A stretch of 39,736 nt of DNA from a virus. Below, piece after piece: positions 1 through 35,043 of this stretch. How positions within the stretch are numbered: the stretch's first letter is position 1; every line of letters starts with the position of its first letter. The position numbers were made by a program, and so were the translations under genes. The notes under the pieces are model-generated. The model had not been told where the DNA came from and did no database searches. It saw only the letters and a list, made by a program, of their open reading frames with translations. The stretch spans positions 1 to 39,736 of IMG/VR virus record IMGVR_UViG_3300047320_000250, one strand, 5' to 3'.

Positions 1-58
1 CTGGAAAGTGTGTATACAGGAAACTGTATCGAGAGTTCGAATCTCTCCTTCACCGCCA
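1..58 (+). tRNA. tRNA-Ser (GGA), 3' part only
   Basis: The window opens inside the anticodon loop. Bases 1-7 read CTGGAAA, giving anticodon GGA at 3-5. A long variable arm follows (ATACAG-GAAA-CTGTAT, 14-29), which marks a class II tRNA. Then come a T arm (GAGAG-TTCGAAT-CTCTC, 31-47), the acceptor strand, the discriminator G and an encoded CCA ending at 58. The 5' half lies outside the window. The gene is the integration site of the prophage: the phage supplies the last 23 bases of the tRNA, so the gene stays functional. Confidence 0.93.
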
Positions 59-7596: not shown

Positions 7597-7883
7597 TGCG
7601 CACACTCCATTTCCATTTGGTCGAGCAGGTCGGGTTGATCGTTGGTGGTCTTCATCGCGGCGCGGCGCAGGGCGATGTCGGCGACAGGCAGGCGCACCGA
7701 CGGGTTGGCCATGCCGCTGGGGCTCATCTCATGAGTCATTTCGAACTGGGCACGCACCGACCAGCCGCAGGCTTCGTTGGTGCATTGCAGGTAGGCCACA
7801 CGCAGAAAGATGTGGGTGCCTTCGCTGGTACGGATGCGCATTCGGCCGAAGCAGTGGGGGCAAACGAGTTTGTAAGTGCTCAC
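7593..7883 (-). CDS. ogr: Ogr/Delta-type late gene activator
   Basis: A 96-aa protein with the zinc-binding pattern of P2 Ogr and P4 Delta: CPHC at 8-11, then CTNEACGW beginning at residue 34 (C-x2-C ... C-x4-C), followed by the RAQFEMTHEMSPS stretch typical of the family. Ogr proteins bind a dyad near -55 of late promoters and contact RNA polymerase alpha. Here the gene is inside the early operon and not beside D as in P2, so it should be made at early times. The likely targets are the TGTA-N11-TACA palindromes at 21205, 25770 and 33220. It overlaps both neighbours by four bases. Confidence 0.85.
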   Translation of the reverse strand: MSTYKLVCPHCFGRMRIRTSEGTHIFLRVAYLQCTNEACGWSVRAQFEMTHEMSPSGMANPSVRLPVADIALRRAAMKTTNDQPDLLDQMEMECAQ

Positions 7884-12180: not shown

Positions 12181-12190
12181 CTCCAAAGCA

Positions 12191-19957: not shown

Positions 19958-21127
19958 TCAGCTATTGATCTTGTTGGCGAAGTTGATCAGGTAGCGGTCA
20001 GTGATGCGCTGCCGCAGGGTGAGGTCTTCGAGCGGTGGCACTGGCGTGTAGTCGTAGTCGAGGAACAACTTGCCGGCCTTGAGGGTGTCCTTGTCGTTGA
20101 TGTCTTCCGGGTACCAGCAACTGCCGCCAATCAGGTAACCGGCGGCGACCAGCTCGCGAAACTTGGCGTTGATGCTCTCGATCATGTCGCGCACCAGGGA
20201 GGCGTGCATCGGCTTGTCGATGGCCCACATCTGCGCCTCGGCCATGGTGTCGGCGAGGATCTGCGCGGTGCGGGTGTAGTTCTCGAAGGCGAACAGCGGA
20301 TCGTCGCTGCAAGTTCGGCTGCCCCAGAAGCGGAAGCCGCTCTCGTTGATCAGCGTGGTGACTTCGTTGCTGTTGAGGTAGTTGGCATCTGTGGCCGGGT
20401 TTTGCAGATCCCAGAACACGTCGGCGCTGATCCCGGTGACGCCGTTGACCGCCACGTTGGACAGGGTCTTGTGCCAGCCCACTTCCTGGTCAATTTTGGC
20501 TCGCAGGCCCAGGGCGCGGGCGACGGCCGAAGCGTTAACGGTGGCGTCGGTCACGGTGTCCCAATTCTGGAAATCCGGCCAGATCACCATCACTTCACGG
20601 GCGCCGAAGTTCTCGCGGTAGGCGACCGCTTCCTCTTTGGTCTTGCAGTCCCAGGCACTGACGTAGTTGAAGGCGCGCAGCTGCTGGCCGATGCTGACCA
20701 GGGCGGTGGCCACCGGCTGACTGTCGAGACCTGGCACGCCGAGGATACGCGGCACCATGCCGACTTTGGCCTTGGCGGCGAGCAGGGCTTTCATGCCGGT
20801 GTATTTGCCGTCGGCGGTGGTGGTGCCGATCAGGGCGCTGGTGGTCTCCGCCTCTGTGGCACCTTCCTTGACCCGCACGACGATGGTGTAGGGTTTGGTC
20901 TGGTCGGCGATGGCTTGCAGGCTCACCGCCAGGGTGCCATTCACGCCGGCTTTGCCGACAGCGGTCTGCACGTTGGTTAACAGCACCGGGGTGTCGAGCG
21001 GGAAGACGGCGGCGTCGGCATCGTCGGCGGTGCAGACCAGGCCGATGACTGCGGTGGGGATGGTGCGGATGGGGCGGGTGCCGTCGTTGAGTTCGAGCAC
21101 CCGCACGCCGTGAAGATAATCGGCCAT
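19958..21127 (-). CDS. FI: Major tail sheath protein FI
   Basis: A 389-aa homologue of P2 FI, the contractile sheath subunit. It starts MADYLHGVRVLELNDGTRPI and ends with the TLRQRITDRYLINFANKI handshake region. AGG lies eight bases before the ATG. It is the first gene of the FI-FII-E-T-U-D unit. Its late promoter (palindrome 21205-21223, -10 at 21170-21165) predicts a leader of roughly 30 nt. Confidence 0.96.
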   Translation of the reverse strand: MADYLHGVRVLELNDGTRPIRTIPTAVIGLVCTADDADAAVFPLDTPVLLTNVQTAVGKAGVNGTLAVSLQAIADQTKPYTIVVRVKEGATEAETTSALIGTTTADGKYTGMKALLAAKAKVGMVPRILGVPGLDSQPVATALVSIGQQLRAFNYVSAWDCKTKEEAVAYRENFGAREVMVIWPDFQNWDTVTDATVNASAVARALGLRAKIDQEVGWHKTLSNVAVNGVTGISADVFWDLQNPATDANYLNSNEVTTLINESGFRFWGSRTCSDDPLFAFENYTRTAQILADTMAEAQMWAIDKPMHASLVRDMIESINAKFRELVAAGYLIGGSCWYPEDINDKDTLKAGKLFLDYDYTPVPPLEDLTLRQRITDRYLINFANKINS

Positions 21128-21164: not shown

Positions 21165-21223
21165 AGGCTGCCGCGCGTGTGTTGGTTGGGCGAGCGCCTG
21201 GGGTTGTACAGAAACTCACTACA
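21165..21223 (-). promoter_or_regulatory. Late promoter of FI (Ogr-type site)
   Basis: TGTA (21205-21208), 11 bases, TACA (21220-21223) form the palindrome shared with the V and O/P upstream regions. On the minus strand CAGCCT (21170-21165) lies 44-49 bases from the palindrome centre, the same distance as in the other late promoters. P2 Ogr binds TGT-N12-ACA near -55; here the spacer is one base longer. Confidence 0.72.
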
Positions 21224-21256
21224 GTGCGACTGGACAAAAATTGCTTGGATAGGGCG

Positions 21257-21682
21257 TCATGAGCGAGGAGGCATGAGCCAAATAGGAGGGATTGGACGAT
21301 GATCCACAAGCGGGAATTCAGCGCCTTGCGGCCAGTCGCGTAACACTCGGCGGTAAGCCTGCAATTCGCGATAGTGCTCACCCGTAAGCGTGGTCGCGAT
21401 ACCTTCCTCGAGCTCGTCACGGTGCCGAGCCACGACGCCATCAGTTACCAAAAGCAGGGTGTCTCGCCATACCCGTTCTATTTCAGCCAATTGCTCAACG
21501 GGCAACGCTGGCCGCTCAATTAACGACGGCGGGCAAGTGGAAAAGTCGATGATTTTCCCCGCAACCTGTCCTTCCAGGTACAACAGGTGCTCATCTGATG
21601 TCAGGGGGTGTGCGTCCTCCGGCAGCGGATTGATACGATCATCCAAAAAGCACTGTTGCGAACAGCTTGAATAAACAGCCAT
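21257..21682 (-). CDS. Tail fibre assembly / tail chaperone protein
   Basis: A 141-aa protein with the pattern of small chaperones encoded after tail fibres in Pseudomonas phages: EIERVWRDTLLLVTDGVVARH, then YRELQAYRRVLRDWPQGAEFP. It takes the place of P2 gene G. It probably helps fold or attach the fibre encoded just upstream at 21737-23287. An N-terminal CSQQC pair is odd but of unclear meaning. Confidence 0.78.
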   Translation of the reverse strand: MAVYSSCSQQCFLDDRINPLPEDAHPLTSDEHLLYLEGQVAGKIIDFSTCPPSLIERPALPVEQLAEIERVWRDTLLLVTDGVVARHRDELEEGIATTLTGEHYRELQAYRRVLRDWPQGAEFPLVDHRPIPPIWLMPPRS

Positions 21683-21736
21683 TTTTCATCCCTTATGAAT
21701 TTGAGCCAGCAACACTCGCTCGTTTGGTCTCGACAG

Positions 21737-23287
21737 CTAGAAGCCAATGGCGAGGTAGTTGTGACCGTTACCGGTGCCGGTCGCATTCCAGACAAAACTG
21801 CTCAGCGAATTTGCGCTTGCGCAGGCGTAGCCCATCGAGTTCGAACCCGCCGTGTAGCCTTGGGAAATCACAACTGTGGCAAACGCAGTGGGAAACGCGA
21901 TTGGTAATGATGTGGTCACATCACCGGCTGTTGCTACTGGGGTCTGGCCCCATTGAAGAATCAGCCCGCTCGGCAACTTCTGCCAGCCACTGGTGCCCAG
22001 AGAGGCGCCGAATGGTCGGGTTTTGCCTTGCACGCCGGTGCCTGTTAGCAACCACCGGCCGGTGCCGATGTATAAGCAATCCACGTAGCTGTCTGGTGGA
22101 ATCGAGCGAGTCGTTGCTGACCACGTACCGTCGATGTTTTCCTGCATTTTGTCCGAGCCTTGAATCGCCAGGCCCAAGCTGGTGACACCCCAATTCTGCA
22201 CACGAACGTTAACGCCTAATGGCAAGTTGTTGGCGGTGGAGTCGGGAAGGCTGTACGAATTTGCTGTTGCGCCAGAACAATGGACCACCCCACCCACATG
22301 GGAAACAATCCCGAGCAACGCACCACTGAACGAGAGAAAACCGGCGTATTGGAGTCCGCGAGCCTGAAGCGCCGCCATGGTGGCGATCTTGGTGCTCACG
22401 TCAAACCGGGCCGGCGTCGGAGCGGTCGGGGTGCCCATGAATGCCGGGGAGTTGATCGGCGCCAACCCCTGCGTAATGTTCTGGAACGTCAGGGCCGTGG
22501 TGCCCACGACAATCACTCCGTCGGTGACGAGTTGCCAACGGGTGTCCGCTTGCGTGGCACCTTGCTCCACCGAAACCAGCAGCGCTGAGCTGACTTTTGC
22601 ATGGGTGTCGGCATCCGGCGCACGAGGCCAAGCACCTGCGGCCGCGACATACAGCCCATTGTCCTTGGCAGACGTTTGGTTCTTGACCAATACCCGGTCG
22701 CCGGCGACCAGGGCGATACCGTCGAGGGTCTTGAGGTCTGTCAGCGTGATGTTGGCTGTGGTGGCCACCCGCACAGACTGCTTGCTGTCGAGTTTATTCA
22801 GCTCCTCCAAGACCTTGGAGTCGACGTAGGCACGGGTCGCGAGGACCACGCTGGGGTCGATCTTCAGTTCGACGTTGCTGGAGTTGCTGACGATCATGTT
22901 CATGCGCACGACTTGCGTACGGCCTGAACCTTGATTGAGTAACGGCTTGAACGAGGGGGCGCAGTTGGCGACGGCGATCATGTCGCCGTCCGAGTCGTAC
23001 AGGCTGATTTCGCGAATCCACCAGCCGCCGACGTTTTCCGGGATCACCTGTTCCGCGACGATGACGGCGGCGTTCGCGGGGTCGACCTTGAGCTGGTTCA
23101 GCGGTGCTCGGCGGCGTTCATTGATGAGCCTGGTTTGTGTGGCTGATGGGATCGGGTCAGTTCCATTGGCATCACCGACGCCCATGTGGGTGATTTGCCA
23201 CGGGATACCCAGGGCATCGGCGTTCGCCTGTTTGGCGACCCCGATGTTGGTGAGGATGGCGAAAAACTGCGAGTTCTGGTCGATCAT
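21737..23287 (-). CDS. H: Tail fibre protein (H-like)
   Basis: A 516-aa fibre. Residues 1-160 match the P2 gpH-type N-terminus that docks on the baseplate (DQNSQFFAILTNIGVAKQA, MGVGDANGTDPIP, GWWIREISLYDSDGDMIAVA). Residues 160-280 hold two strand-rich repeats (VRVATTANITL, DGLYVAAAGAWPRA). The end, RPFGASLGTSGWQKLPSGLILQWG with NYLAIGF at the C-terminus, is a receptor-binding domain of the kind seen in R-type pyocin and P2-like fibres. It sets host range. It overlaps I by four bases. Confidence 0.9.
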   Translation of the reverse strand: MIDQNSQFFAILTNIGVAKQANADALGIPWQITHMGVGDANGTDPIPSATQTRLINERRRAPLNQLKVDPANAAVIVAEQVIPENVGGWWIREISLYDSDGDMIAVANCAPSFKPLLNQGSGRTQVVRMNMIVSNSSNVELKIDPSVVLATRAYVDSKVLEELNKLDSKQSVRVATTANITLTDLKTLDGIALVAGDRVLVKNQTSAKDNGLYVAAAGAWPRAPDADTHAKVSSALLVSVEQGATQADTRWQLVTDGVIVVGTTALTFQNITQGLAPINSPAFMGTPTAPTPARFDVSTKIATMAALQARGLQYAGFLSFSGALLGIVSHVGGVVHCSGATANSYSLPDSTANNLPLGVNVRVQNWGVTSLGLAIQGSDKMQENIDGTWSATTRSIPPDSYVDCLYIGTGRWLLTGTGVQGKTRPFGASLGTSGWQKLPSGLILQWGQTPVATAGDVTTSLPIAFPTAFATVVISQGYTAGSNSMGYACASANSLSSFVWNATGTGNGHNYLAIGF

Positions 23288-23901
23288 AGAAATACATCCA
23301 GGGTGTCGATGGTGTGGTCGCGACCGCCTCGGCCCATTACGCCGCTGACTTCGATGTCACGCTGGGCAGGCGGGTAAACGCTGATTTCGTCGCCCTCATA
23401 CAGGGTGGCGCCCAGGTACACACGACCGGTGGTTGCCAGGCTGATGGTCAGGCCAGTGAGATGACGGCTGCGTGGTTTGGCGTCATCGATGAGGAAGCTC
23501 AGTTCCTGGTACATCTCATCAGTGATGCCGGTTTCCAGTACCCCAACCTTCAAGGCGAAGGTGCCGGGGACGCCTTCGGGATGAGTCTGAAACCACTCAA
23601 CCACCTCGATCAGGTATCCAAGCGGCTCGACCACGCGGCGCAGGGCGCCGATGGTGCCTTTGCGTGAGTGGATGTAGTACGCCGAGCGAATGGCGGCGCG
23701 CTTGGTGGCTTCGCTCCACTGGGTATCCCATCGGTCCACGGAAAAAGCCCAGGCCAGATAGGGCAGCATTTCGAGGGGGCATTGCGATGGGCTCCAGAGT
23801 TGGCGCAGGGGGATGGGCGTGCGTTGAATCTGCGACAGCGCCTCGGCCGCCAAACGCTCCAGCTGGGTGGCATTACGCGGTAAAAGCGAAACGCTGCCCA
23901 T
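23284..23901 (-). CDS. I: Baseplate protein I
   Basis: A 205-aa homologue of P2 gpI: LLPRNATQLERLAAEALSQI, then LPYLAWAFSVDRWDTQWSE and the HSRKGTIGALRRVVEPLGY segment. It joins the tail fibre to the baseplate wedge. Starts in a TAATG overlap with J and ends in an ATGA overlap with the fibre gene. Confidence 0.94.
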   Translation of the reverse strand: MGSVSLLPRNATQLERLAAEALSQIQRTPIPLRQLWSPSQCPLEMLPYLAWAFSVDRWDTQWSEATKRAAIRSAYYIHSRKGTIGALRRVVEPLGYLIEVVEWFQTHPEGVPGTFALKVGVLETGITDEMYQELSFLIDDAKPRSRHLTGLTISLATTGRVYLGATLYEGDEISVYPPAQRDIEVSGVMGRGGRDHTIDTLDVFL

Positions 23902-24812
23902 TACTCAACCCCCTGTGTCAGGGTGATGCCAGTGCAATACGGTGCCTGGTACGGCGTCGCGCGGATGTCCACCCAGTTCTCCAGCTCGACTTTGCGCACG
24001 CCCTCGACGTGCAGCGCGGCGTGGATCGCAGATTCGGACACGTCTATGGCCAGGCGCCGACGTTGGTGGACGAACGCTAACAAGCGTTGTTCGGCAGCGG
24101 CAAGGATGGGCTCCGACTCGGGGCCGCTGGTTTTCAAGAACAGCTTGGCTTTAACCAGGTAGGGAACAACAGCGGCGCTTTGCACCGTCAAGCGATCCGC
24201 CACGGGGCGGCGGTCGTCGTCGCTGAGGTAGGCATTCACGATGCTGAGCAATTCCGGTGCAGCGCTACCGTCACCCAATAGCGCCTGAACCGTCACCACC
24301 ACTACGGCCGGGGACGGGCTTTCCGCCGTGGCATCGGCCACACGTCCATCTGCCGCGCGGGCGTGAAAGATGTAGCTGTTGCGTGGGCCAGCGGTGCTCA
24401 GGCCTTCCCAGGCCATTTGTGCGCGTTCGCGCAGGCTGTCGTCGCTTTCCATCAGCCTTGGCATCGGCGGCACGGCCGATGGATTGCCGGGCTGTATGAC
24501 CAGCCGTTTGACGTTGTAGTTGGCGGCGAGGTTTTCGAGGTCGGTGCCTTTGGCCAGAGCGAGCATGTTGGCGACGGACGCCTCGTTGACCCGCTGCCGC
24601 CACACGGTTTCGCGGTAGGCGTTTTCCTCGAGCAATTTGGTCAGAGGCTCGGACTCCATTTCCAGGCGAGCAGCAATCTCTTCCTGTTGCTCGGCCGGCC
24701 AGAGGCTGATGGTGTAGGCCTTGCGCTCGGCGAGGATCTGCTCGTAATCGAGCTGCTCGACGATCTGCGGTGCCGGTAGTTGGCTGAGGTCGATGGCCAC
24801 GAAGGTGTTCAT
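23901..24812 (-). CDS. J: Baseplate wedge protein J
   Basis: A 303-aa homologue of P2 gpJ. Typical words are AIDLSQLPAPQIVEQLDYEQ, ANMLALAKGTDLENLAANY and STAGPRNSYIFHARAADG. It builds the baseplate wedge with W and I. ATGA overlap with W. Confidence 0.94.
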   Translation of the reverse strand: MNTFVAIDLSQLPAPQIVEQLDYEQILAERKAYTISLWPAEQQEEIAARLEMESEPLTKLLEENAYRETVWRQRVNEASVANMLALAKGTDLENLAANYNVKRLVIQPGNPSAVPPMPRLMESDDSLRERAQMAWEGLSTAGPRNSYIFHARAADGRVADATAESPSPAVVVVTVQALLGDGSAAPELLSIVNAYLSDDDRRPVADRLTVQSAAVVPYLVKAKLFLKTSGPESEPILAAAEQRLLAFVHQRRRLAIDVSESAIHAALHVEGVRKVELENWVDIRATPYQAPYCTGITLTQGVE

Positions 24813-25153
24813 GCGCTGCCCCCCAATTGCAGAGGTACGCTCAGGCTCAACGGCTGATTGCTGTCCACGAGGGTGCCCTCAAGGTCCAGCGATGCTTGGC
24901 CTTGGAGGTTCGCCCCGACGAGCTGCACACGACTCAGGCTGATGCGCGTTTCCCAGCGCATCAAGGCCATGACCGTGGCGGCATACACCTGCAGGCGGGT
25001 GAAGTCGTTGAACGGCTGATCCACCAGCTCGGGCAGCAGGCTGCCGTACTCGCGGCGCATGACGCGGGTGCCGAGGCGGGTGGTCAGGATGTCGTTGATG
25101 GATTGGGCGATGTGTTCGACCAGGTTGAGGGCGGCGCCGGTTTCTCGGTTCAT
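24809..25153 (-). CDS. W: Baseplate protein W (gp25-like)
   Basis: A 114-aa protein of the gpW/gp25 family, shown by IAQSINDILTTRLGTRVMRR and YGSLLPELVDQPFND; the EPR-like signature region is present in variant form. The start at 25153 is set by an ATGA overlap with V; a much longer open frame upstream is a shadow of V. It starts sheath assembly at the baseplate. Confidence 0.93.
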   Translation of the reverse strand: MNRETGAALNLVEHIAQSINDILTTRLGTRVMRREYGSLLPELVDQPFNDFTRLQVYAATVMALMRWETRISLSRVQLVGANLQGQASLDLEGTLVDSNQPLSLSVPLQLGGSA

Positions 25154-25722
25154 TCCGGTTTCCCTGTTTTGCCACTGCCTGGCATTACGCTGCCGTGTGG
25201 GTGGTTGACCAGGCTGATGCCGGCGGCGACCACGTCCTCCGACACGGCGACCTTGCCGGTGATGGTCTGGTTGCCGGTTTGCGTGTAGTCGCCTTCGTGG
25301 GTGATCGGGCCAACGATGTGGATGCCGCCGGTGCTGGTCAGGTTTGTGGTGCCGCCTTCGGCCAGCGTGGCATTGAGGTGGTGCGCGATGCTGTCGTACT
25401 CGATCACCGTGCCGTCGCGGTAGGTACAACGGTGTAGGCCTTCGCGGTCGCCGTTGGCCGGGATGTGATCGCTGAACAGGCCGGTCAGGACGATGCCGTT
25501 GCCGAGTTGGCCGGAGGGGCTGAACAGGATGACTTGCTCGTCGACGGTGGGTGGATTCCACTCGCGGTCGGCGCCGGCCTGTGGGGCGATCCATGGGAGC
25601 CAGCCGGTGGTCAGTGATCCGGTTTTGATCTGGACGCGCGGGGGCTTCATCTGGACGGCGGCGATGGTGCCGAGACGGATGAGGTTTTCGATCAGGCGGG
25701 CGAGGGTGGCTAGGTCGTTCAT
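25150..25722 (-). CDS. V: Baseplate spike protein V
   Basis: A 190-aa homologue of P2 gpV, the central spike that pierces the outer membrane. The start MNDLATLARLIENLIRLGT matches the family start; the 15 codons before it are not needed. An OB-fold part (VQIKTGSLTTGWLPW) precedes a beta-helix-like C-terminus with repeated short strands. No Shine-Dalgarno sequence precedes the ATG. The late promoter elements place the transcription start on the ATG, so the message is probably leaderless. Confidence 0.92.
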   Translation of the reverse strand: MNDLATLARLIENLIRLGTIAAVQMKPPRVQIKTGSLTTGWLPWIAPQAGADREWNPPTVDEQVILFSPSGQLGNGIVLTGLFSDHIPANGDREGLHRCTYRDGTVIEYDSIAHHLNATLAEGGTTNLTSTGGIHIVGPITHEGDYTQTGNQTITGKVAVSEDVVAAGISLVNHPHGSVMPGSGKTGKPE

Positions 25723-25729
25723 GACGCCG

Positions 25730-25788
25730 ATGGTGGTGCTATGCGCGTGTGCTTGCAGCCTTAGCAATTTGTATAGCTTTGAGTTACA
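25730..25788 (-). promoter_or_regulatory. Late promoter of V (Ogr-type site)
   Basis: TGTA (25770-25773), 11 bases, TACA (25785-25788). On the minus strand CACCAT (25735-25730) lies 44-49 bases from the palindrome centre, followed after seven bases by the V ATG. Spacing and hexamer agree with the P promoter, base for base in position. Confidence 0.72.
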
Positions 25789-25918
25789 TGCTCAGATCAA
25801 TGTGATGTCTGGATTGGAGGTAATTTAATTCCGGCTCTTCCTAGCATAATGGCTATTCGCTGCTATACATTTGTCAAGGGTGACAAGAAGTCATTAAAGG
25901 CGGGTTAGGGAGTCGGGA

Positions 25919-26815
25919 TTGAAAAGAACAGTATGTATATCCGGATTATCGGGTTCTCATCGAGTAGGGCGGGGGTTCTTAATCTCTATGGTGGTATTTA
26001 CCGCCGCTTGCTCCAATCGCCCCACTCATTTCATACCACCTAATCGTGCTGATCCGATTATGGAAGTCTCCGAAGTCAAAATCGAAGAGACTCGAGATAT
26101 TCTTAAAAGAATCAATAGCACTTCAACTCGGAACGCTGAACAGCTTAAATTACTTTCAATGTCAGATATTTATTGCGGTGACTTTATTTCCTCGATTTAT
26201 GGACGGCGGGCTGTGACAAATGTTTGGTACAGTACCATTACAACGGCTACAGCGGCGGCGGCTGCAATTGTAGGCGGCAGAGCGGCGCAAAATTTGGCGG
26301 GCACATCTGCTGTGACCAATGAAATGCGTTCATCCATAAACAACGAAATGTACGGAGGTGAGCTTATACCTACAGTCGCTAAAGAGATACAAGGCATGCG
26401 CAAAGCCGAGATTACTCGCATTAACAGTTGGCAAGCGAAAGGCCTGGACCTATATAGCGGTTCCGCAGCGGTCTCAGATGCGATCGGCTACCACGAAATG
26501 TGTTCAATCCCTATCGCGATTTCTAGAATTTTGAGTCGGGCCAATGAAAAATATGGAGTCGAGACCCTTGATCTTGATAGTTCAGTTAAAAAAATAGATG
26601 ACGCGATTACTGCTAACAAAACCTTGTTGAATGATAAAAATTTTTCGAGTGATCCATTAAAGAAAAAAGAACTTACTACGGCAATCCTCGAATTGGCGGA
26701 GCGCCGGAACGCATTAATAAAAACGTTCGCAATACCCGGTTATAAGACTATTTCCGACGATGGGGGGAAACCCGGAGTTGCTTCCGGATCATCTGGAGAT
26801 TCCACGCCCAAATAA
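25919..26815 (+). CDS. Putative lipoprotein moron between V and S
   Basis: A 298-aa protein with a TTG start at 25919 preceded by GGGAG. After a basic start, a hydrophobic run ends in FTAAC, a lipobox-like site with Cys at 31, which suggests export and lipid anchoring. A small hydrophobic Ala-rich stretch (about 107-128) follows, then a long helical domain with many charges and a Ser/Gly-rich end. It is transcribed against the late genes and has higher AT content. No family recognised. Position and lipobox suggest lysogenic conversion, perhaps surface modification or exclusion. An alternative ATG at about 25989 would shorten the signal peptide. Confidence 0.6.
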   Translation: MKRTVCISGLSGSHRVGRGFLISMVVFTAACSNRPTHFIPPNRADPIMEVSEVKIEETRDILKRINSTSTRNAEQLKLLSMSDIYCGDFISSIYGRRAVTNVWYSTITTATAAAAAIVGGRAAQNLAGTSAVTNEMRSSINNEMYGGELIPTVAKEIQGMRKAEITRINSWQAKGLDLYSGSAAVSDAIGYHEMCSIPIAISRILSRANEKYGVETLDLDSSVKKIDDAITANKTLLNDKNFSSDPLKKKELTTAILELAERRNALIKTFAIPGYKTISDDGGKPGVASGSSGDSTPK

Positions 26816-26865
26816 TCGGCCGCTTGAGCTAGGTTTTGAGTCAAGTAATTAGTTCTTGACCTTGG

Positions 26866-27324
26866 CTATGACCGCAAATGTACGAGTAGTTCATCGCGGA
26901 TTAAGTCTATGTCGGCCTCAGAGAGGCCAAGTATCTCCCGTTGCTCATAATTGACAGAGGGTGCACCCAGTTCGGCGCGGTCTTTTAGCCCGAACTGGTG
27001 CACTCTCGCAATCCGGGCAATGCGCCCCACATAACCAACGCTGATCGCGTTACTGTCACCCCGAACCTTCAGAAAACTTGCGTTCCGAATTTTTTTGAAC
27101 ATCTGAATCTTGCGCTTCACCCTTCCTTTCTTACCACGGAGGTTGCGCTGTTTGCGCGGTGCGTACTTGCTCCCGTCCGGATTACGCTGGGCAATGATTC
27201 GTTGCTGCTGGCTGCGCCGCAATGCTTGACCGAGGCTGCGGGCGAGCTTGTTGCGCGAAGCAGGCTCAAGCTGCCCGAGCAGACCGGCCGCCCAGTCTTC
27301 CAGCACTTCCAGGCGGTTGGTCAT
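26866..27324 (-). CDS. S: Tail completion protein S
   Basis: A 152-aa phage virion morphogenesis protein, homologue of P2 gpS. Family words are ARSLGQALRRSQQQRIIAQRNPDG, YAPRKQ and VGRIARIARVHQFG. The start MTNRLEVLEDW is chosen by its ATGA overlap with R. It helps finish the tail. Confidence 0.92.
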   Translation of the reverse strand: MTNRLEVLEDWAAGLLGQLEPASRNKLARSLGQALRRSQQQRIIAQRNPDGSKYAPRKQRNLRGKKGRVKRKIQMFKKIRNASFLKVRGDSNAISVGYVGRIARIARVHQFGLKDRAELGAPSVNYEQREILGLSEADIDLIRDELLVHLRS

Positions 27325-27797
27325 TTTGGCAGCACCCATTCGCTACCGGTGCCCTGGGTACCAGGTATCCAGTTCGGGTCGAGGAAGTCGGCAGCCCGTT
27401 GTGGTTCCCCAGGATGGCGGATGGTGGTATTGCCCTGGTCATCCTTACCCACTACCACTCGTTCGGTCAGGGGCAGCGTCAGGCTCAAATCGACTTTGCT
27501 GTTGTCCAGAATGTCGGCCTCGAACTGGATGCCGTCAGCCGCCTTACTTAGGTTCTCCAGCAACTCAGATTGATGGACACTCAGCCAGCCGAGTAGCGGC
27601 AGCATGACGCTGTCGGGGTGGCCGGCGAAGTCGGTGAGGATGACTTGCAGGTCGAAGCTGTACTCGAACGACAGTGATGCAGCGGCGGTGCAGCGGATCT
27701 TGCCGTTGTCGATGAAAATCAGCAGCCGGTCAGGGTTGTGCTTGAGTTCCGCGACGGTGGCCAGCAGGTGAGCTTTCAGGCTGTCGGGTTTGTTCAT
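27321..27797 (-). CDS. R: Tail completion protein R
   Basis: A 158-aa homologue of P2 gpR: MNKPDSLKAHLLATVAEL with NPDRLLIFIDNGKI and the YSFDLQVILTDFAG segment. The start at 27797 is set by an ATGA overlap with the outer spanin gene and agrees with the family start. Confidence 0.93.
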   Translation of the reverse strand: MNKPDSLKAHLLATVAELKHNPDRLLIFIDNGKIRCTAAASLSFEYSFDLQVILTDFAGHPDSVMLPLLGWLSVHQSELLENLSKAADGIQFEADILDNSKVDLSLTLPLTERVVVGKDDQGNTTIRHPGEPQRAADFLDPNWIPGTQGTGSEWVLPK

Positions 27798-28051
27798 GGT
27801 TGGGCCTGCTGATGTTGGTAAACCATATCGACTTGGCCAGCGCATTCTGCCCAGGCAGCTTCGACGCGATCCTGATCGGTGAGTTGGTCGCCGTTACTGC
27901 GTGGGCTGGTCGCCGGCAGGGTGCAGGGCACCACGGCCGGACAGCCACTGACGATAAGCGTCGGCGCCGGTGAGGGCGGGGTGCTCGCGCAGCCGGCGAG
28001 CAGCATCAGGCATAGGCTGGGCAGCCCAATTGCGTAGTTCGGTGTTTTCAC
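27794..28051 (-). CDS. lysC: Outer-membrane spanin lipoprotein (LysC/Rz1-like)
   Basis: An 85-aa lipoprotein with lipobox LLAGC (Cys 21) followed by a proline-rich start (ASTPPSPAP), as in Rz1-type o-spanins. More than half of it overlaps the inner spanin gene in another frame. With its partner it fuses inner and outer membranes at the end of lysis. Confidence 0.85.
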   Translation of the reverse strand: MKTPNYAIGLPSLCLMLLAGCASTPPSPAPTLIVSGCPAVVPCTLPATSPRSNGDQLTDQDRVEAAWAECAGQVDMVYQHQQAQP

Positions 28052-28337
28052 GTTTCAGTGCCTCGATGGTGAGTTCGCGCTTTGCCAGGCCTTGGCGCAA
28101 TTGATCTTGCTGGGTGCGCAGGGTGGCCTGGGCGGTGCGTTCCTGGTGCAGAGTGGCGCGCAACGCGTGGGCATCCGCGAGGTGGCGCTCGGCGTGTTCC
28201 CGGGCGGTGTTGGCGTCTTGGGTGGCTAGCTTGGTGTTCTGGTTTGCCACGTTGATGCGCAGTGCCTGGCTCCAGACCAGCAGCACCAGGGACGCGAGCA
28301 GGGCGATGCCAAGCAGGGTCTGGCGAACAGTTGTCAT
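27894..28337 (-). CDS. lysB: Inner-membrane spanin (LysB/Rz-like)
   Basis: A 147-aa protein with one N-terminal membrane segment (LLGIALLASLVLLVWS, residues 8-23) followed by a long coiled coil (ATLHQERTAQATLRTQQDQL) and a DAARRLREH-like end. This is the i-spanin design. The lysC frame starts inside it, at 28051, an overlapping Rz/Rz1 arrangement. Confidence 0.87.
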   Translation of the reverse strand: MTTVRQTLLGIALLASLVLLVWSQALRINVANQNTKLATQDANTAREHAERHLADAHALRATLHQERTAQATLRTQQDQLRQGLAKRELTIEALKRENTELRNWAAQPMPDAARRLREHPALTGADAYRQWLSGRGALHPAGDQPTQ

Positions 28338-28540
28338 GCGCGGTACCAGCCGAGCTTATTCATGGCGTCGACGTCCAGCTGCTGCACCGGGCCGCGGATG
28401 ATGATGACCTTGCGGTCCGGCATCTGGACGTACAGCGCATCGCAGAGCAGTTCCATGTCGTATTGATCGCTGTCCGGTGGCACCACCAGCAGATCACCGT
28501 CTTGCACGTTCAAACGTTGCACGGCATCGAAGTCGATCAT
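28334..28540 (-). CDS. Small protein in the lysis cassette
   Basis: A 68-aa acidic protein, MIDFDAVQRLNVQDGDLLVV followed by DALYVQMPDRKVIII. It overlaps endolysin and i-spanin genes by four bases each, so it is translated with them. No membrane segment, no signal. It occupies the place of P2 lysA but does not look like it. Function unknown. Confidence 0.65.
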   Translation of the reverse strand: MIDFDAVQRLNVQDGDLLVVPPDSDQYDMELLCDALYVQMPDRKVIIIRGPVQQLDVDAMNKLGWYRA

Positions 28541-29379
28541 GCGGCCACCGCCTGACCGCAGCCGCAGTCTTCGTGTCGTTCGTAGGCGCGCTGGAGTTTG
28601 ATGTCATACAGGTTCCGCTGATAGTGCGGCCCGTTGTAGAGCTTGGCGAACTCGGCCCATTTGCGGCCTTTCAACGCCTTGTGCAGTGCCGGGTCGGTCT
28701 CAATGAAGCGCACGAAGGCATCGAGTTGCTGCGACTCGCTCGCGCTCATGGCCGCGACGAAGTCTTGCACGCTGCCGTAGCCCAGGCGCTGCCAGTGAAA
28801 ACCCATGATCTGGAAGGCGCCCCAGGAGGCGGATTCGAGTGCTGCGGTGTCGTCGATCAAGCGTGCTGTGGCCAGGCGCTGATGTTCGGCGGTGCCGCCG
28901 GCATAACCACCCGACCTAGGGTTGACGATGGCCGGGTTGGTGGCGGCCAACTGGTCGGCGTGGCGCTTGAGTGCCGTGGCATCGTCGCCTTCGTGCCGAA
29001 CCGTCAACAGTTGGCGGTACATGACATGCCGCTCGAACAGGATCACTGGCTTGCCGTTGTCGAGGAAGCCGGCGCCTTTCGACTCAACTTCGTTGACCGC
29101 GTAGACGCTGGCCAGCGGCACGCCGAGGCGTTCGGCGGCGTTCACCAGGTCGACGTTTTTCAGCAGACGCTGGCAGTCAGCGCCGGCGAGTGCGGCCTGC
29201 GTCTTGCTGCTGGCGATGCCATCGGCAACCAGGCCAACCTTGAGTTGGTAGGCACGCACGGCGGCTTCGGTGACGTCACCGTAATCGCCATCGATGATCA
29301 GCCTGGCGCCGTGCTGGTTGAGGTTCTTTTGCAGGATACGCACTGCTTGCGAGCGGTCGCCGTGGCGAAGGGTGGTCAT
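28537..29379 (-). CDS. Endolysin: N-acetylmuramidase with PG-binding domain
   Basis: A 280-aa lysin. Residues 5-62 are a peptidoglycan-binding module (HGDRSQAVRILQKNLNQHG, DGDYGDVTEAAVRAYQ). Residues 75-265 match the DUF3380 muramidase (ASVYAVNEVESKGAGFL with the likely catalytic Glu at 97 or 99, and ASWGAFQIMGFHWQRLGY). There is no signal peptide, so release depends on the holin. The start is set by an ATGA overlap with the holin gene. Confidence 0.92.
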   Translation of the reverse strand: MTTLRHGDRSQAVRILQKNLNQHGARLIIDGDYGDVTEAAVRAYQLKVGLVADGIASSKTQAALAGADCQRLLKNVDLVNAAERLGVPLASVYAVNEVESKGAGFLDNGKPVILFERHVMYRQLLTVRHEGDDATALKRHADQLAATNPAIVNPRSGGYAGGTAEHQRLATARLIDDTAALESASWGAFQIMGFHWQRLGYGSVQDFVAAMSASESQQLDAFVRFIETDPALHKALKGRKWAEFAKLYNGPHYQRNLYDIKLQRAYERHEDCGCGQAVAA

Positions 29380-29699
29380 AGCTGATCTACCTTGCGAGTG
29401 AAGAGCCTTTTCGCCGCGGCACGAGTGCCTTCGACGCCCAGCAGGCCGATGACGCCGCCGAAGAAGGGGGCGGTCGAGGCCGGAATCCCCACCAACGACA
29501 AGCCATGGCTCACCGCAAGGGCCAGTGCACCGCACAGCGGCGCCTCGCTCACCATCCGGCGCAGGGTGCCGCCGCCGTAGATGACCCGCAGACCTGCGAT
29601 GGCCAGGGCAAGTAGGCCGGCGTAGAGGGTCGGCCAGTGCTGTTCGAGCCAGGCGGCGAGCCAGGCCCAGGTTTCGTGACGGTCAGGCATGCGTTTCAT
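29376..29699 (-). CDS. Holin, lambda S family
   Basis: A 107-aa holin with three hydrophobic segments (about residues 25-41, 55-72 and 76-92) and a basic tail. It starts MKRMPDRHETW, so translation may begin at Met 1 or Met 4, the layout of the lambda S105/S107 dual start (MKMPEK); an extra Lys/Arg on the longer form would make it an inhibitor of early lysis. Total length equals lambda S107. No strong Shine-Dalgarno is visible for either start. Confidence 0.82.
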   Translation of the reverse strand: MKRMPDRHETWAWLAAWLEQHWPTLYAGLLALAIAGLRVIYGGGTLRRMVSEAPLCGALALAVSHGLSLVGIPASTAPFFGGVIGLLGVEGTRAAAKRLFTRKVDQL

Positions 29700-29744
29700 T
29701 CCAGGGTCCAGGGTGGTTGGGTTCAAGGGCGCGGTGCGGACGGG

Positions 29745-29957
29745 TCAGTCCCATAGGTTCACCCTCTGCCGTTGCGGGGCTGCGGTTTGGGTTTCGGGCA
29801 TCTCCACCAGGAGGCCTTGCGGGAGTGTCGGGCCGTGGTCGGCCAGGCCCGGGTTGGCTTCAAGTACGGCTTCGGTAACGCCGGCGGTGCGGCCGTAGTG
29901 ACGCCAGCACAGGGCGTCGACGGTGTCGCCTTGCTGGGCGCGGACGGAGACGGCCAT
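29745..29957 (-). CDS. X: Tail protein X
   Basis: A 70-aa LysM-like protein, homologue of P2 gpX (RAQQGDTVDALCWRHYG, TEAVLEANPGLADHG). It starts in a TGATG overlap with L. It is thought to bind near the tail terminator or baseplate. Confidence 0.92.
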   Translation of the reverse strand: MAVSVRAQQGDTVDALCWRHYGRTAGVTEAVLEANPGLADHGPTLPQGLLVEMPETQTAAPQRQRVNLWD

Positions 29958-30418
29958 CAGATCAACTCCACGGTTGTGCGGCCCAGACCGAGGAAGTCGC
30001 GCACGGCCCAGCGCTGGTCGCGGCGCAGTTCGTCGATACTGGGGCTGAGGTCGTCGGCGTTCTGATTGCCATTGTTGGTGCTGTCGAACGAGCGGTAGCG
30101 CTCGCATATTTCCGCACCGGTCGCGGCATAGATGGCGCGCTGGTAGAGGTGGACGAGTTGAGAAACGTCTTTGACCATTTCGGCCGGGACGTCGGCGAGC
30201 GTGGCGTAGCCTTCGGCTTGCCTGGCGCGGCGCCACTCGGTGAACTCGCGATTGACGCTGATGGCGGCGGCGATGGTTGCAGTTTCCAGGCGGATGGCGG
30301 TGACACTGGAGTCGATCCGCAGCGTGCCACGCACGTCGTCGAGTTCAATCGACGGCCAGAAAGGGTCGGTGTTGATATGGCCGGCAGGGGCCGTGCTGCC
30401 GGCTACGAATCCACTCAT
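29957..30418 (-). CDS. L: Head completion protein L
   Basis: A 153-aa homologue of P2 gpL: DPFWPSIELDDVRGTLRIDS, then FTEWRRARQAEGYATLADVP and the basic RRDQRWAVRDFLG end. It joins the packaged head to the connector. Confidence 0.93.
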   Translation of the reverse strand: MSGFVAGSTAPAGHINTDPFWPSIELDDVRGTLRIDSSVTAIRLETATIAAAISVNREFTEWRRARQAEGYATLADVPAEMVKDVSQLVHLYQRAIYAATGAEICERYRSFDSTNNGNQNADDLSPSIDELRRDQRWAVRDFLGLGRTTVELI

Positions 30419-30522
30419 GTCGGTGCGCTCTGCGTTAGGTCGCCGGTGGTCGGGGCTTCACGTTCAGGAGGAGTGGCCTGGCCGATCCGCCCCGAGCCGG
30501 CGGGGTGCGTGGGGACGCTCGG

Positions 30523-31221
30523 TTAGCTACCGGTGGTAGCGTGTTTTTTGAGCAGGCGTTCGGCCCGCTCCAGATCCTTTTTGCCGCCGCAGGCGTCGTG
30601 CAGGTCAATCGCCTTCTTCAGCAGGTCGATGCCGGCTTGCACCTGACCGGGTTGACCGGGTTGCTCTTCGGTGAGGCCTTCCAGCGTTGCGCGGCCCATG
30701 GCGAGGAACAGCTTGGCGCGGGCCTGATCGGGCATGTCTTCGGCGTCGGTCAGTTCGGCGGTGCGGTGCAGGATGGCCAGGTCGAAGGGTTCACCGACCT
30801 TCTGCGCCTTGAACGCGGCGGTGGCGACTTCTTCCGCCACCAGGCAGCCCAAGGTGCGAGCGAAGCGATCGGGCATGATCATCTTGTGCTGCAGCACGTA
30901 TTGGGCAATGTCCAGGCCGCCGGTGAAGTCGCCGGCATCGAAGCGCCAGACCATGACGGTGGTCATCACTTCGTCCTGGGCGCCTTGGCCGGCTTCCAGC
31001 ACGCCTCGCACATAGGGCACGTAGTCGGGCAGCAGCTGGCGTTTGAGTTCGGCTTTGCCCTGGTTCGATTGCACCTGTTTCAGGCGCAGGCGGTCTTGCA
31101 GCAGCTGGTTGAGCTGATGCTCGTAGGCGGTGGCACCGGCCATGGTTTGGGTCGGTTCGGCCGCTGCCGCCTCGATGGCGGCAGTGACCCGTTGGAAATG
31201 GCGGCGGCAGGGGTTGGTCAT
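30523..31221 (-). CDS. M: Terminase small subunit / endonuclease M
   Basis: A 232-aa homologue of P2 gpM. Family words: TNPCRRHFQRVTAA, LPDYVPYVRGVLEAGQGAQD and MTTVMVWRFDAGDFTGGLDI. With P it recognises and cuts cos. A 104-bp spacer without features separates it from L. Confidence 0.93.
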   Translation of the reverse strand: MTNPCRRHFQRVTAAIEAAAAEPTQTMAGATAYEHQLNQLLQDRLRLKQVQSNQGKAELKRQLLPDYVPYVRGVLEAGQGAQDEVMTTVMVWRFDAGDFTGGLDIAQYVLQHKMIMPDRFARTLGCLVAEEVATAAFKAQKVGEPFDLAILHRTAELTDAEDMPDQARAKLFLAMGRATLEGLTEEQPGQPGQVQAGIDLLKKAIDLHDACGGKKDLERAERLLKKHATTGS

Positions 31222-31231
31222 GGTCGGCCCC

Positions 31232-32242
31232 TTACGACGCGATTTCGATGTTTTCAGCGAGCGAGGCGCATTCCAGATCCTCGATCACGTAGGCATCGTT
31301 CACCGATTCATAGTTCTCGATGCGGTCACGTTTGGCGTTGTCGAGGACGGTGCGACGGCGGCTGCCTTCCTGCCAGTAGATCGATAGGTTTTCCAGTTTG
31401 GTGACCAGCAGCCCGCGCGCGGGGAAGTACGGCACGCGCACCGCCGGCAAGTTGCCCAGGCGTTTCTGGCTGGTGACGATGTCGGCGGCCAGCATCTCGG
31501 TCGGGGCGTTGTCTTTGTTGATGATTGGGAAGTACTTGTCGGCCAGCAGTTGGCGGCCGCAGATCACCACCAGATCCGGGTCTTCCTGGTACCAGGGCGC
31601 AATGAATTCCTCGACCATGCTGAAGACCAGGGCGTCGAGGTTGGTGAAGTCCTTGCCGGCGCCGATGGTGATCGTGCCCGAGCCTTCAACGACTTCCGTC
31701 ATGACGCGGGCGGCGTTTTCGGTGCGCATCTTTTGCAGCCAGCCGACGTTGACGTCCTGGCGCAGCGGGTTGGTGGCAGGGTTGGAAGTGGCGGCACGGT
31801 TGATGCCGTTCCAGCCGATCAGGATGCGGTCCAGCGCCTGGCGCTTGAGGATGGCGTCGCGGATACGTGCCTGAAAATCGGGAAACTTGGCCCAGGCATC
31901 CAGCTTGCTGTAGCGCAGGTGGGTGTCGAAGTTGGTTTGCGAGCAGAAGTAGCCACGGTCGTCGAGGGTGGTGATGTCGCTGGTTTCGCGGTCTTTCAGG
32001 GTGGTGTCGGTGGTGCCGGCGTTCGGACCGCCGATGCCCATGCCGATCTTTTCGCCCATCTGCTCGGTCACGCCGTAGATGTTGATCGCGCTGAGGAATT
32101 GACTGGATTCCTGCATGCGGGTTTCCAGGGTTTGGGTGACGCTGGGCGCAGTGGCGAATTTGGTGGTCACGTTCGGCACGCCGTGCAGCTTGGCCAACTG
32201 GCCGAGGTAGGCGTTGAAATGGTTACGGGTATCGTTGCGCAT
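31232..32242 (-). CDS. N: Major capsid protein N
   Basis: A 336-aa homologue of P2 gpN (MRNDTRNHFNAYLGQLAKLHGV; GMGIGGPNAGTTDT; SIYWQEGSRRRTVLDN). The N-terminus of P2 gpN is trimmed by the O protease during head maturation; the same is likely here. Confidence 0.96.
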   Translation of the reverse strand: MRNDTRNHFNAYLGQLAKLHGVPNVTTKFATAPSVTQTLETRMQESSQFLSAINIYGVTEQMGEKIGMGIGGPNAGTTDTTLKDRETSDITTLDDRGYFCSQTNFDTHLRYSKLDAWAKFPDFQARIRDAILKRQALDRILIGWNGINRAATSNPATNPLRQDVNVGWLQKMRTENAARVMTEVVEGSGTITIGAGKDFTNLDALVFSMVEEFIAPWYQEDPDLVVICGRQLLADKYFPIINKDNAPTEMLAADIVTSQKRLGNLPAVRVPYFPARGLLVTKLENLSIYWQEGSRRRTVLDNAKRDRIENYESVNDAYVIEDLECASLAENIEIAS

Positions 32243-32285
32243 GGAGGTCGTCCTTCGTTGTTCGGGGCTTTGGGTGGGCCGGCTG

Positions 32286-33116
32286 TCAGCAGTCGGTCAT
32301 GACCTGGTTGTCGCCACCGGTGACCGGAGGGCGCTTCGTTTGGTTGTGGTCCTGGGTGTTGGAGAGCCTGGTTTTCAGCTCTTTCAGGTCGGTACTGACC
32401 TGTTCGATTTGCGTTTTCAGTTCTGCGGAGAACTGTTTCTCGGCAGCCAGTTGATCGGGCAAATCCTTGACGTGTTCGGCGACGGCTTCGACCGCATCGC
32501 TGATATGAGCGAACTCGGTGTCGTCCTTGGTTTGCTTGCCTTTGAGCAGGGTTTGCACCTTGCTGAACAACTGGGCGCCGAGGCTGGGCTTGTCTTCGAT
32601 TTCCTCGAACGTCAGTTCGGTCTCGAGCGCCTCGGTGAACATTGAGGTCGCGGAGTAGTGGCGATCCTTGAACGGACTGGCGTCAGGTTTCTGGGCTGAG
32701 AACGACAGCACGTCGGTGCCGAGGCTGGCCGGGGAATCGGTGATGCCAAGGCCGACGATGTAGGCCTCGCCGGTATCGGCGAAGCTATCGTCGATTTCAA
32801 TTGAGGTGTAGACCTTCTGCTTGGCCTTGTTCAGGGCGATCAGTTCGGCGGTCGGCTCGACCTGGGCGAACAGCGCCAGTTTCTTTTGGCCACCGATGTC
32901 CACTTCTTCGGTCTTCACTGCCAGCACGTCGCCGTAAGCCTTGAACGGGCCATCGGGCAGCACGCTGCGGTAGTGTTCCAGCCAGATGCGTGCGCCGTAG
33001 GTGGACGGGTTGAAGTTCTTCGCGGCTTGTTCCAGCCAGTTGCGTTTAATGGTGCGCTTGTCCGAGGTCGCGCCCTCGACGGCGACGCGGAACCAGTTGC
33101 TGCGGAATTTCTTCAT
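32286..33116 (-). CDS. O: Capsid scaffold / protease O
   Basis: A 276-aa homologue of P2 gpO: protease domain in residues 1-150 (KKFRSNWFRVAVEGATSDKR, RIWLEHYRSVLPDGPF, VGLGITDSPASLGT) and a scaffold part rich in coiled coil (FSAELKTQIEQVSTDLKEL). GAGGA lies about eight bases before ATG 33116; longer frames upstream are not needed. It is transcribed from the shared O/P late promoter. Confidence 0.94.
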   Translation of the reverse strand: MKKFRSNWFRVAVEGATSDKRTIKRNWLEQAAKNFNPSTYGARIWLEHYRSVLPDGPFKAYGDVLAVKTEEVDIGGQKKLALFAQVEPTAELIALNKAKQKVYTSIEIDDSFADTGEAYIVGLGITDSPASLGTDVLSFSAQKPDASPFKDRHYSATSMFTEALETELTFEEIEDKPSLGAQLFSKVQTLLKGKQTKDDTEFAHISDAVEAVAEHVKDLPDQLAAEKQFSAELKTQIEQVSTDLKELKTRLSNTQDHNQTKRPPVTGGDNQVMTDC

Positions 33117-33179
33117 GCCGGGAATCCTCATTGCGTGGGGCGCCTGCCGGTGGGTGAGCAGTGCATTGCGATGAGGGGC

Positions 33180-33278
33180 ATGGTCGTGACGCGCGCGGGT
33201 TGCGGCAACGAGGTGGGACTGTAGGGAAGGGCGGTACAAAGGGCGGCGCTATTGAGTCGCGGGCGCGGGCGGCAGCAT
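33180..33278. promoter_or_regulatory. Divergent O and P late promoters sharing one palindrome
   Basis: TGTA (33220-33223), 11 bases, TACA (33235-33238). Rightward, CAGCAT (33273-33278) and, leftward, GACCAT (33185-33180) both lie 44-49 bases from the palindrome centre. The P start codon follows the rightward hexamer after seven bases. One activator dyad thus seems to serve both directions. The predicted O leader is about 56 nt; that of P is nil. Confidence 0.7.
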
Positions 33279-33285
33279 CGCGGCC

Positions 33286-35043
33286 ATGACTACGACCGAA
33301 CTGTTGCCCATCGATCCCCGCCGCCAATCCAAATTTCTGTATTGGATGGGGTGGCGCGTCTGCGAGATTGCCGAGGCTACGGGCGAAAAGGAAAAAACGC
33401 TACACAGCTGGAAGGCCCGTGATGAATGGGATCGGGCCGACAACGTCGAGCGCATTGGCGGGGCGTTGGAGGCGCGGCTGGTGCAGTTGATCCTCAAGGA
33501 AGGCAAGAGCGGTGGCGACTTCAAGGAGATTGATCTGTTGCACCGGCAGTTGGAGCGGCAGGCGCGGATTCAGCGTTTTCAGGGCGGCGGTACCGAGACT
33601 GAGCTCAATCCGAATCTAGCCAAGCGCAACGCCGAGCCGAAGAAGAAGGCCGTCAAAAACGAGATCGATGAAGACCAGGTCGAGCTGCTGCGCGAGGCGT
33701 TTCTCGACGGTTGTTTTGACTATCAGAAAGACTGGTACCGGGCGGGCAATCAGCGTACTCGCGTCATCCTCAAGAGCCGGCAGATCGGGGCGACTTACTA
33801 CTTCGCTCGCGAGGCATTTATCGATGCCCTGGATACCGGGCGTAATCAGATTTTTCTCTCGGCCTCGAAGAACCAGGCTTACCTGTTCCGCGGTTACATT
33901 CAGGCGTTCACCCGCGAGGTAATCGGCGTTGAGCTGACCGGTGACCCCATCGTGTTGCCCAACGGTGCCGAGTTGTTTTTCCTCGGCACCAACGCCCGCA
34001 CCGCCCAGGGCTACCACGGCAATTTCTACTTCGACGAATTCTTCTGGACGTTCAAGTTCGAGGAGTTGAACAAGGTCGCCTCGGGCATGGCGATGCACAA
34101 GAAGTGGCGCAAAACTTACTTTTCGACGCCGTCGAGCATGGCCCACGAGGCCTATACCTTTTGGACTGGCGAGCGCTTCAACAAGGGCAAGCCCGCCACG
34201 GAGCACACGAAGGTGGACGTGTCTCACGGGGCGCTTCAGCAGGGGCGGTTTTGTGAGGATCGTCTGTGGCGGCAGATCGTCACGATCCTGGATGCGGAGC
34301 GGGGCGGTTGTGATCTGTTCGACATCGAAGAGCTACGCCGCGAGTACAGCCCCGAGGCGTTCGCCAACCTGTTGATGTGTGAGTTTGTCGATGATGGGGC
34401 GAGCATTTTCCCACTGACGCTGTTGCAGTCGTGCATGGTGGACAGTTGGGTCGAGTGGGCGGAGGACTACAAGCCGTTCGCCATGCGCCCGTTCGGCGAT
34501 CGGCAGGTGTGGATTGGTTATGACCCGGCTGAGACCGGCGACTGCTCGGGGATGGTGGTGGTTGCGCCGCCGCTGGTACCGGGCGGTAAGTTCCGGATTC
34601 TGGAGCGTCACCAGTTTCGCGGTATGGACTTTGCCGCGCAGGCCGCGTTTATCAAGAGCGTCTGCGACCGCTACTGGGTGACCTACATCGGCATCGATGT
34701 CACGGGGCTGGGTAGCGGCGTGGCGCAGCTGGTGCGCCAGTTCTTCCCGGCGGTTACCACTTTCAGTTACTCGCCTGAGGTTAAGACCCGCCTGGTGCTC
34801 AAGGCCTATGACGTTATCCACAAGGGACGGCTCGAATTCGACGCCGGCTGGACAGACATGGCCCAGTCGCTGATGGCGATTCGCAAGACGGTCACCGCTG
34901 GCGGACGGCAGTACACCTACACCGCTGGGCGCAACGACAACACCGGTCACGCCGATCTGGCGTGGGCGCTCTTTCACGCATTGCACAACGAACCGCTTGA
35001 GGGGCAGACCGCTGCCAATACCGGGCGGATGGAGATTTATTGA
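33286..35043 (+). CDS. P: Terminase large subunit P (ATPase)
   Basis: A 585-aa homologue of P2 gpP. Residues 15-50 hold a helix-turn-helix-like start (GEKEKTLHSWKARDEWD). The packaging ATPase has the variant Walker A KSRQIGAT (163-170) and Walker B NFYFDEFF (246-253). The nuclease-like part begins GYDPAETGDCSG. It packages DNA from cos. No Shine-Dalgarno is visible, and the predicted transcription start lies on the ATG. Confidence 0.95.
   Translation: MTTTELLPIDPRRQSKFLYWMGWRVCEIAEATGEKEKTLHSWKARDEWDRADNVERIGGALEARLVQLILKEGKSGGDFKEIDLLHRQLERQARIQRFQGGGTETELNPNLAKRNAEPKKKAVKNEIDEDQVELLREAFLDGCFDYQKDWYRAGNQRTRVILKSRQIGATYYFAREAFIDALDTGRNQIFLSASKNQAYLFRGYIQAFTREVIGVELTGDPIVLPNGAELFFLGTNARTAQGYHGNFYFDEFFWTFKFEELNKVASGMAMHKKWRKTYFSTPSSMAHEAYTFWTGERFNKGKPATEHTKVDVSHGALQQGRFCEDRLWRQIVTILDAERGGCDLFDIEELRREYSPEAFANLLMCEFVDDGASIFPLTLLQSCMVDSWVEWAEDYKPFAMRPFGDRQVWIGYDPAETGDCSGMVVVAPPLVPGGKFRILERHQFRGMDFAAQAAFIKSVCDRYWVTYIGIDVTGLGSGVAQLVRQFFPAVTTFSYSPEVKTRLVLKAYDVIHKGRLEFDAGWTDMAQSLMAIRKTVTAGGRQYTYTAGRNDNTGHADLAWALFHALHNEPLEGQTAANTGRMEIY

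What the first reader, a model, noticed from the sequence alone, without database searches (positions are those of the whole stretch)
21165..33278. Late promoter code: TGTA-N11-TACA with a CASCMT-like hexamer at fixed distance
Palindromes at 21205-21223, 25770-25788 and 33220-33238 stand before FI, V and O/P. In all four directions of use, a hexamer (CAGCCT, CACCAT, CAGCAT, GACCAT) lies exactly 44-49 bases from the centre. P2 Ogr sites are TGT-N12-ACA near -55; here TGT to ACA is 13 bases. An Ogr-type gene is in the early operon. The motif was found by eye three times, each at an expected late promoter.
Basis: partly seen in the sequence, partly recalled or inferred. Interest (0 to 1): 0.72.

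Follow-up and report, generated by a model that had tools for sequence, protein, structure and literature searches.

The report
Ogr-type late promoters of a prophage
The three paired DNA signals are real, strongly conserved switches that turn on a P2-like Pseudomonas prophage's virion genes late in infection; this switch type is already known, but its fixed geometry predicts that two of the messages start right at the first codon, with no leader.

Summary
Confirmed. TGTA-N11-TACA occurs exactly three times in the window (0.13 expected), each before a late operon of a P2-like (Citexvirus-like) provirus: FI, V, and the divergent O/P pair. In about 80 relatives per operon the half-sites are essentially invariant, while the N11 spacer and, at V, most surrounding DNA are randomised. 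The hexamer at +44..49 is also real. Its general form is xAxxxT (A-11/T-7 of a -10 element), not strictly CASCMT. A composite pattern scan of viral contigs recovered P or V start codons in 81 of 89 hits. An Ogr/Delta zinc-finger gene lies in the early operon (7593-7883). This is a known kind of promoter. The 13-base TGT-to-ACA spacing is not new either: TGTTGT-N13-ACAACA is published for Ralstonia phages RSA1/RSY1. Spacing is lineage-specific: N13 in Pseudomonas and Burkholderia relatives, N14 in Halomonas relatives. P2's record maps its V start site to the first base of the V codon. Binding, transcription starts and leaderless translation are inferred.

The parts
21205..21223 (.). Ogr-type activator site of the FI operon (TGTACAGAAACTCACTACA)
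   Evidence: pattern; conserved in 80/80 FI relatives with at most 1 mismatch
21165..21170 (-). -10-like hexamer CAGCCT of P_FI, +44..49 from centre; predicted TSS about 21158, leader about 32 nt to FI ATG at 21127
   Evidence: CAGCCT in 71/72 unique relatives
25770..25788 (.). Ogr-type activator site of the V operon
   Evidence: 79/79 V relatives with at most 1 mismatch
25730..25735 (-). -10-like hexamer CACCAT of P_V; predicted TSS at or 1-2 nt before the V ATG (25722)
25150..25722 (-). V (baseplate spike); start codon 57 bases from the site centre, no Shine-Dalgarno: predicted leaderless
   Evidence: identity; geometry, SD
33220..33238 (.). single activator site shared by divergent O and P promoters
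   Evidence: 78/79 P relatives with at most 1 mismatch; P2 and 186 records also annotate one shared site
33273..33278 (+). -10-like hexamer CAGCAT of P_P; predicted TSS about 33284-33285
33286..35043 (+). P (terminase large subunit); ATG 57 bases from the site centre: predicted leaderless
33180..33185 (-). -10-like hexamer GACCAT of P_O; predicted TSS about 33173
   Evidence.A...T in 97% of relatives
32286..33116 (-). O (head scaffolding protein), leader about 57 nt with SD (GAGGA)
19958..21127 (-). FI (tail sheath)
7593..7883 (-). Ogr/Delta-type zinc-finger activator, 96 aa, in the early operon between a CII-like gene and the primase gene
   Evidence: PF04606, phrog_603, CX2CX22CX4C

Best explanation
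The three sites are the Ogr-dependent late promoters of a P2-like provirus. Early transcription makes the 96-aa zinc-finger Ogr protein. Ogr binds TGTA-N11-TACA, probably as a dimer, one subunit per half-site, centred near -55, and recruits host RNA polymerase to a weak -10 element (xAxxxT, A-11/T-7) 44-49 bases away. The O/P site serves both directions; the FI and V sites serve one each. The TSS falls about 55-57 bases from the centre. This gives leadered FI and O mRNAs and leaderless (0-2 nt) V and P mRNAs. Shown: motif, geometry, conservation, presence of the Ogr gene, lack of an SD before V. Inferred: Ogr binding, dimer, -10 identity, TSS, leaderless translation.
For: Three exact sites against 0.13 expected, all at late operon heads. 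Near-invariant half-sites with random spacers in relatives: information content 2.0 bits in TGT/ACA against 0.07 in N11 and 0.10 in the flank at V. Hexamer at fixed distance in all four directions. Blind composite scan: 81/89 viral hits and 33/80 genome hits start P or V; the remaining genome hits look like chance, mostly in unrelated AT-rich genomes. P2 record: one shared O/P site, TSSs 111 bases apart (55.5 each side), V TSS equal to the V start codon. The 186 record gives the same layout for its activator B. Ogr homolog with PF04606 and CX2CX22CX4C in 80/80 relatives.
Against: No direct binding or TSS data for this phage. The published P2 spacing is N12; here it is N13. P2's own sites do not fit an exact TGT-N12-ACA either, and N13 is reported elsewhere. 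P in P2 has a 23-nt leader, so leaderless P is not universal. Weak SD-like pairing is computed upstream of P, but from bases that would lie upstream of the predicted TSS.
Confidence: 0.9

Rival explanations
1. The palindrome is bound by another phage or host regulator (the CII-like protein, the Cro/C-type repressor, or a host factor) rather than Ogr.
For: CII-like and HTH regulators are encoded next to ogr; no binding was tested.
Against: Sites occur only at late operons and not at the early switch. Position (-55), the shared O/P site and the operon set match the Ogr/B sites annotated in P2 and 186. No candidate site near ogr survives comparison with relatives.
Confidence: 0.06
2. The hexamer before V and P is a translation-initiation signal, not a -10 element; V and P mRNAs have ordinary leaders from a start further upstream.
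For: Hexamer and ATG are separated by a fixed 6-7 bases at V and P.
Against: The same hexamer at the same distance from the site occurs before FI and O, where no ATG follows at 6-7 bases. V has no SD (0 of 72 with dG at or below -4). The P2 V TSS is annotated at the start codon.
Confidence: 0.12
3. Chance palindromes kept by common descent of the surrounding sequence.
For: P, O and FI flanks are partly conserved among relatives.
Against: At V the spacer and flanks are randomised (0.07-0.10 bits) while TGT/ACA stay at 2.0 bits. The geometry recurs in the Burkholderia and Halomonas lineages with other half-sites and spacings.
Confidence: 0.01

Closest known systems
P2 late promoters PP, PO, PV, PF and activator Ogr (186: B protein)
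   Same: Same four operons, one shared O/P site, centre about -55, C4 zinc-finger activator with CX2CX22CX4C, V start codon 57 bases from the site centre with a CAATCT hexamer at +44..49
   Different: Half-sites TGTA/TACA with N13 between TGT and ACA instead of the published N12; ogr sits in the early operon rather than after D; P is predicted leaderless (23-nt leader in P2)
Ralstonia phages RSA1/RSY1 late promoters (PMC5694545)
   Same: TGT-N13-ACA spacing, upstream of the four late operons, Ogr homolog
   Different: Extended arms TGTTGT/ACAACA instead of TGTA/TACA; hexamer and TSS not described in the passage read
Stenotrophomonas phage Smp131 (PMC3931495)
   Same: P2-like late operons and an Ogr homolog with the same cysteine motif; by the rule found here, TGTA-N11-TACG sites lie before V and P
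   Different: The published coordinates fall inside or at the start of coding sequence; the better sites lie about 56 bases upstream of the V and P start codons
Citexvirus phages of P. aeruginosa (Dobby, Sirocco, D14A)
   Same: Same genome plan; in Dobby, TGTA-N11-TACA at O/P and V, one mismatch at FI, and ogr in the early operon
   Different: Only sequence divergence (about 74% identity)

Membership tests
Ogr-dependent late promoters of P2-like phages | Inverted TGT...ACA half-sites upstream of the late operons (P/Q, O-S, V-G, FI-D) | tested here: met
Ogr-dependent late promoters of P2-like phages | Site centred about -55 from the TSS, -10 at the matching distance | tested here: inconclusive
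   -10-like hexamer at +44..49 in all four directions; the TSS itself is only inferred from the P2 record
Ogr-dependent late promoters of P2-like phages | Exact P2 spacing TGT-N12-ACA (a sub-type feature, not family-wide) | tested here: not met
   N13 here; N13 published for RSA1/RSY1; N14 in the Halomonas lineage; P2's own sites deviate
Ogr-dependent late promoters of P2-like phages | Shared site for divergent O and P promoters | tested here: met
   single site 33220-33238 with hexamers both ways
Ogr-dependent late promoters of P2-like phages | Transcription requires the cognate Ogr protein | not testable with these tools
   needs reporter or binding assays
Ogr/Delta zinc-finger activators | PF04606 domain with CX2CX22CX4C | tested here: met
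   PF04606 5.4e-16; motif in the window and 80/80 relatives
Leaderless mRNAs (V and P) | 5' end within about 3 nt of AUG | not testable with these tools
   predicted from geometry; shown only for P2 V by record annotation

The most novel reading that the evidence does not exclude
Across Peduoviridae the Ogr site, -10 hexamer and start codon form one rigid unit (site centre, 44-49 to YANNMT, 6-7 bases, AUG). The spike gene V, and outside enterobacteria also terminase gene P, are therefore expressed from leaderless mRNAs in most lineages, while FI and O from the same activator have ordinary leaders. The half-site spacing (12/13/14) is retuned lineage by lineage together with Ogr.
Probability: 0.6. 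Interest if true: 0.55.

Novelty: new member of a known kind. Interest (0 to 1): 0.38.

Why it matters
It gives a reliable signature for the late promoters of a large group of Pseudomonas prophages and shows that the textbook N12 rule is one lineage's variant (N13 and N14 elsewhere). It points to better site coordinates for Smp131. It also makes a sharp, cheap prediction: V and P mRNAs of these phages begin at the AUG. If so, virion assembly in a large phage family depends on leaderless translation, which behaves differently from SD-led translation under stress and with some antibiotics such as kasugamycin (general knowledge).

Tried and rejected
A fifth site near ogr at 7871-7889 (one mismatch) is not conserved in 80 relatives. 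A recurrent exact site 190 bases upstream of ogr in 9 of 80 relatives looks like a by-product of conserved codons in the CII-like gene: most relatives have 2 or more mismatches there, and the examples inspected carry no xAxxxT hexamer. Divergent use of the V site towards the + strand gene at 25919, or of the FI site, is unsupported: ATTTAA and CATGAG at the -10 position. A search for satellites or other genes using the composite pattern found only P and V plus scattered chance hits. A solved structure of an Ogr relative was sought and none found. Records under the accessions tried for phiCTX and RSA1 are not held.

Full report
What the window is. The 39.7-kb window is a virus record carrying a P2-like provirus with gene order D-U-T-E-FII-FI / G-H-I-J-W-V / ... 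S-R-lysis-L-M-N-O / P-Q. Its closest annotated phages are the P. aeruginosa Citexvirus-type phages D14A, Dobby and Sirocco at about 74% identity. The identity of P, O, V, FI, the CII-like gene, the primase and the Ogr-type gene was checked with Pfam and PHROGs.

Observation. TGTA-N11-TACA occurs exactly three times (0.13 expected; 0 of 100 shuffles reach 3), at the stated coordinates. TGT-N13-ACA alone is not significant (9 against 6.8).

Conservation. About 80 contigs each were fetched for P, V and FI. The site is present with at most one mismatch in 78/79, 79/79 and 80/80. Information content at TGT/ACA is 2.0 bits at every operon. The outer A/T pair scores 1.3-1.8. The N11 spacer scores 0.07 bits at V and about 0.5 at P, O and FI. 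At V the flank (0.10) and linker (0.38) are also low, so common descent does not explain the conserved letters. Hexamers: CAGCAT (P), GACCAT (O), CACCAT (V), CAGCCT (FI). The shared letters are A at position 2 and T at position 6 (88, 97, 81 and 100% against 4.5% background), which is what sigma-70 reads most strictly in a -10 element (general knowledge).

Blind test. A composite pattern (site, 34 bases, CANCAT, 7 bases, ATG) was scanned against all viral contigs. Of 89 hits examined, 48 precede P and 33 precede V. In bacterial genomes 33 of 80 hits precede P or V; the other 47 look like chance, mostly in unrelated AT-rich genomes.

Comparison with P2 and 186. P2's record annotates one activator site for O and P with TSSs at 3127 and 3016, i.e. 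55.5 bases either side of the midpoint, and the V TSS at 10308, the first base of the V start codon. P2 V reads TTGT-N11-ACAA centred at 10251, CAATCT at +44..49, ATG at +57: the same geometry as in the window. The 186 record shows the same layout for activator B.

Spacing is lineage-specific. In Burkholderia Mana-like phages nearly all P and V promoters have TGT-N13-ACA, mostly with GTTGT/ACAAC arms. In Halomonas 4908-like phages it is N14 in 21/21 P and 4/4 V promoters, and never N13. Ralstonia RSA1/RSY1 are published as TGTTGT-N13-ACAACA (PMC5694545). P2 is described as TGT-N12-ACA (PMC3931495). So N13 is not new. For Smp131 the published coordinates fall in or at coding sequence; the rule found here points to TGTA-N11-TACG sites about 56 bases before V and P.

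Leaderless prediction. The start codons of V and P lie 56-58 bases from the site centre and 6-7 bases after a [CTG]ANN[AC]T hexamer: Citex-like P 64/68 and V 70/72, Mana P 25/42 and V 29/29, Halomonas P 21/21 and V 4/4, P2-clade V 29/29 (hexamer only), against 4.1% of all ATGs in a control. V has essentially no Shine-Dalgarno (0/72 with dG at or below -4, against 24% of random 15-mers); most other late genes do. P shows some GGCGG pairing, but from bases upstream of the expected TSS. With the site centred at about -55, V and P mRNAs would start at or within 2 nt of the AUG. FI and O would have leaders of about 32 and 57 nt.

Activator. The 96-aa protein (7593-7883) matches Ogr_Delta PF04606 with CX2CX22CX4C, as do 80/80 relatives and the P2, 186, Dobby, Mana, Halomonas and Smp131 proteins. 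It lies in the early operon between a CII-like gene and the primase gene, the same position as in Dobby. No solved structure of a relative was found.

Verdict. It is a well-supported new example of a known promoter class. The leaderless V/P geometry is the most interesting addition and is directly testable.

Noticed in passing
L793 (G019:C1:22304-22322): A second copy of the V promoter with CACCAT hexamer and what looks like an out-of-frame remnant of the V 5' end lies about 1.2 kb upstream of the intact V promoter, as if an insertion had come in with a partial duplication.
   Followed up: partly
window 11771-12191 (-): Open frames here repeat part of tail gene D (EAIAGGGENFKDLRHTYSDRQSAL..., compare 14491-15762), a partial duplication beside inserted accessory genes.
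   Followed up: no
window 9385-11837 (+): A 511-aa AAA/OLD-like ATPase (by eye) and a 306-aa partner stand next to the repressor gene, a possible anti-phage defence pair.
   Followed up: no
window 13147-13730 (+): A HicA/HicB-like pair by eye (84 and 110 aa), a possible toxin-antitoxin module.
   Followed up: no
window 25919-26815 (+): A 298-aa lipoprotein-like accessory gene inserted between S and V on the opposite strand, without Pfam or PHROG match.
   Followed up: partly
L324 (Smp131) 4381-4398, 10964-10981, 14928-14946: Late promoter coordinates published for Smp131 fall in or at coding sequence in the RefSeq record; better sites for V and P lie about 56 bases upstream of the start codons.
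   Followed up: partly
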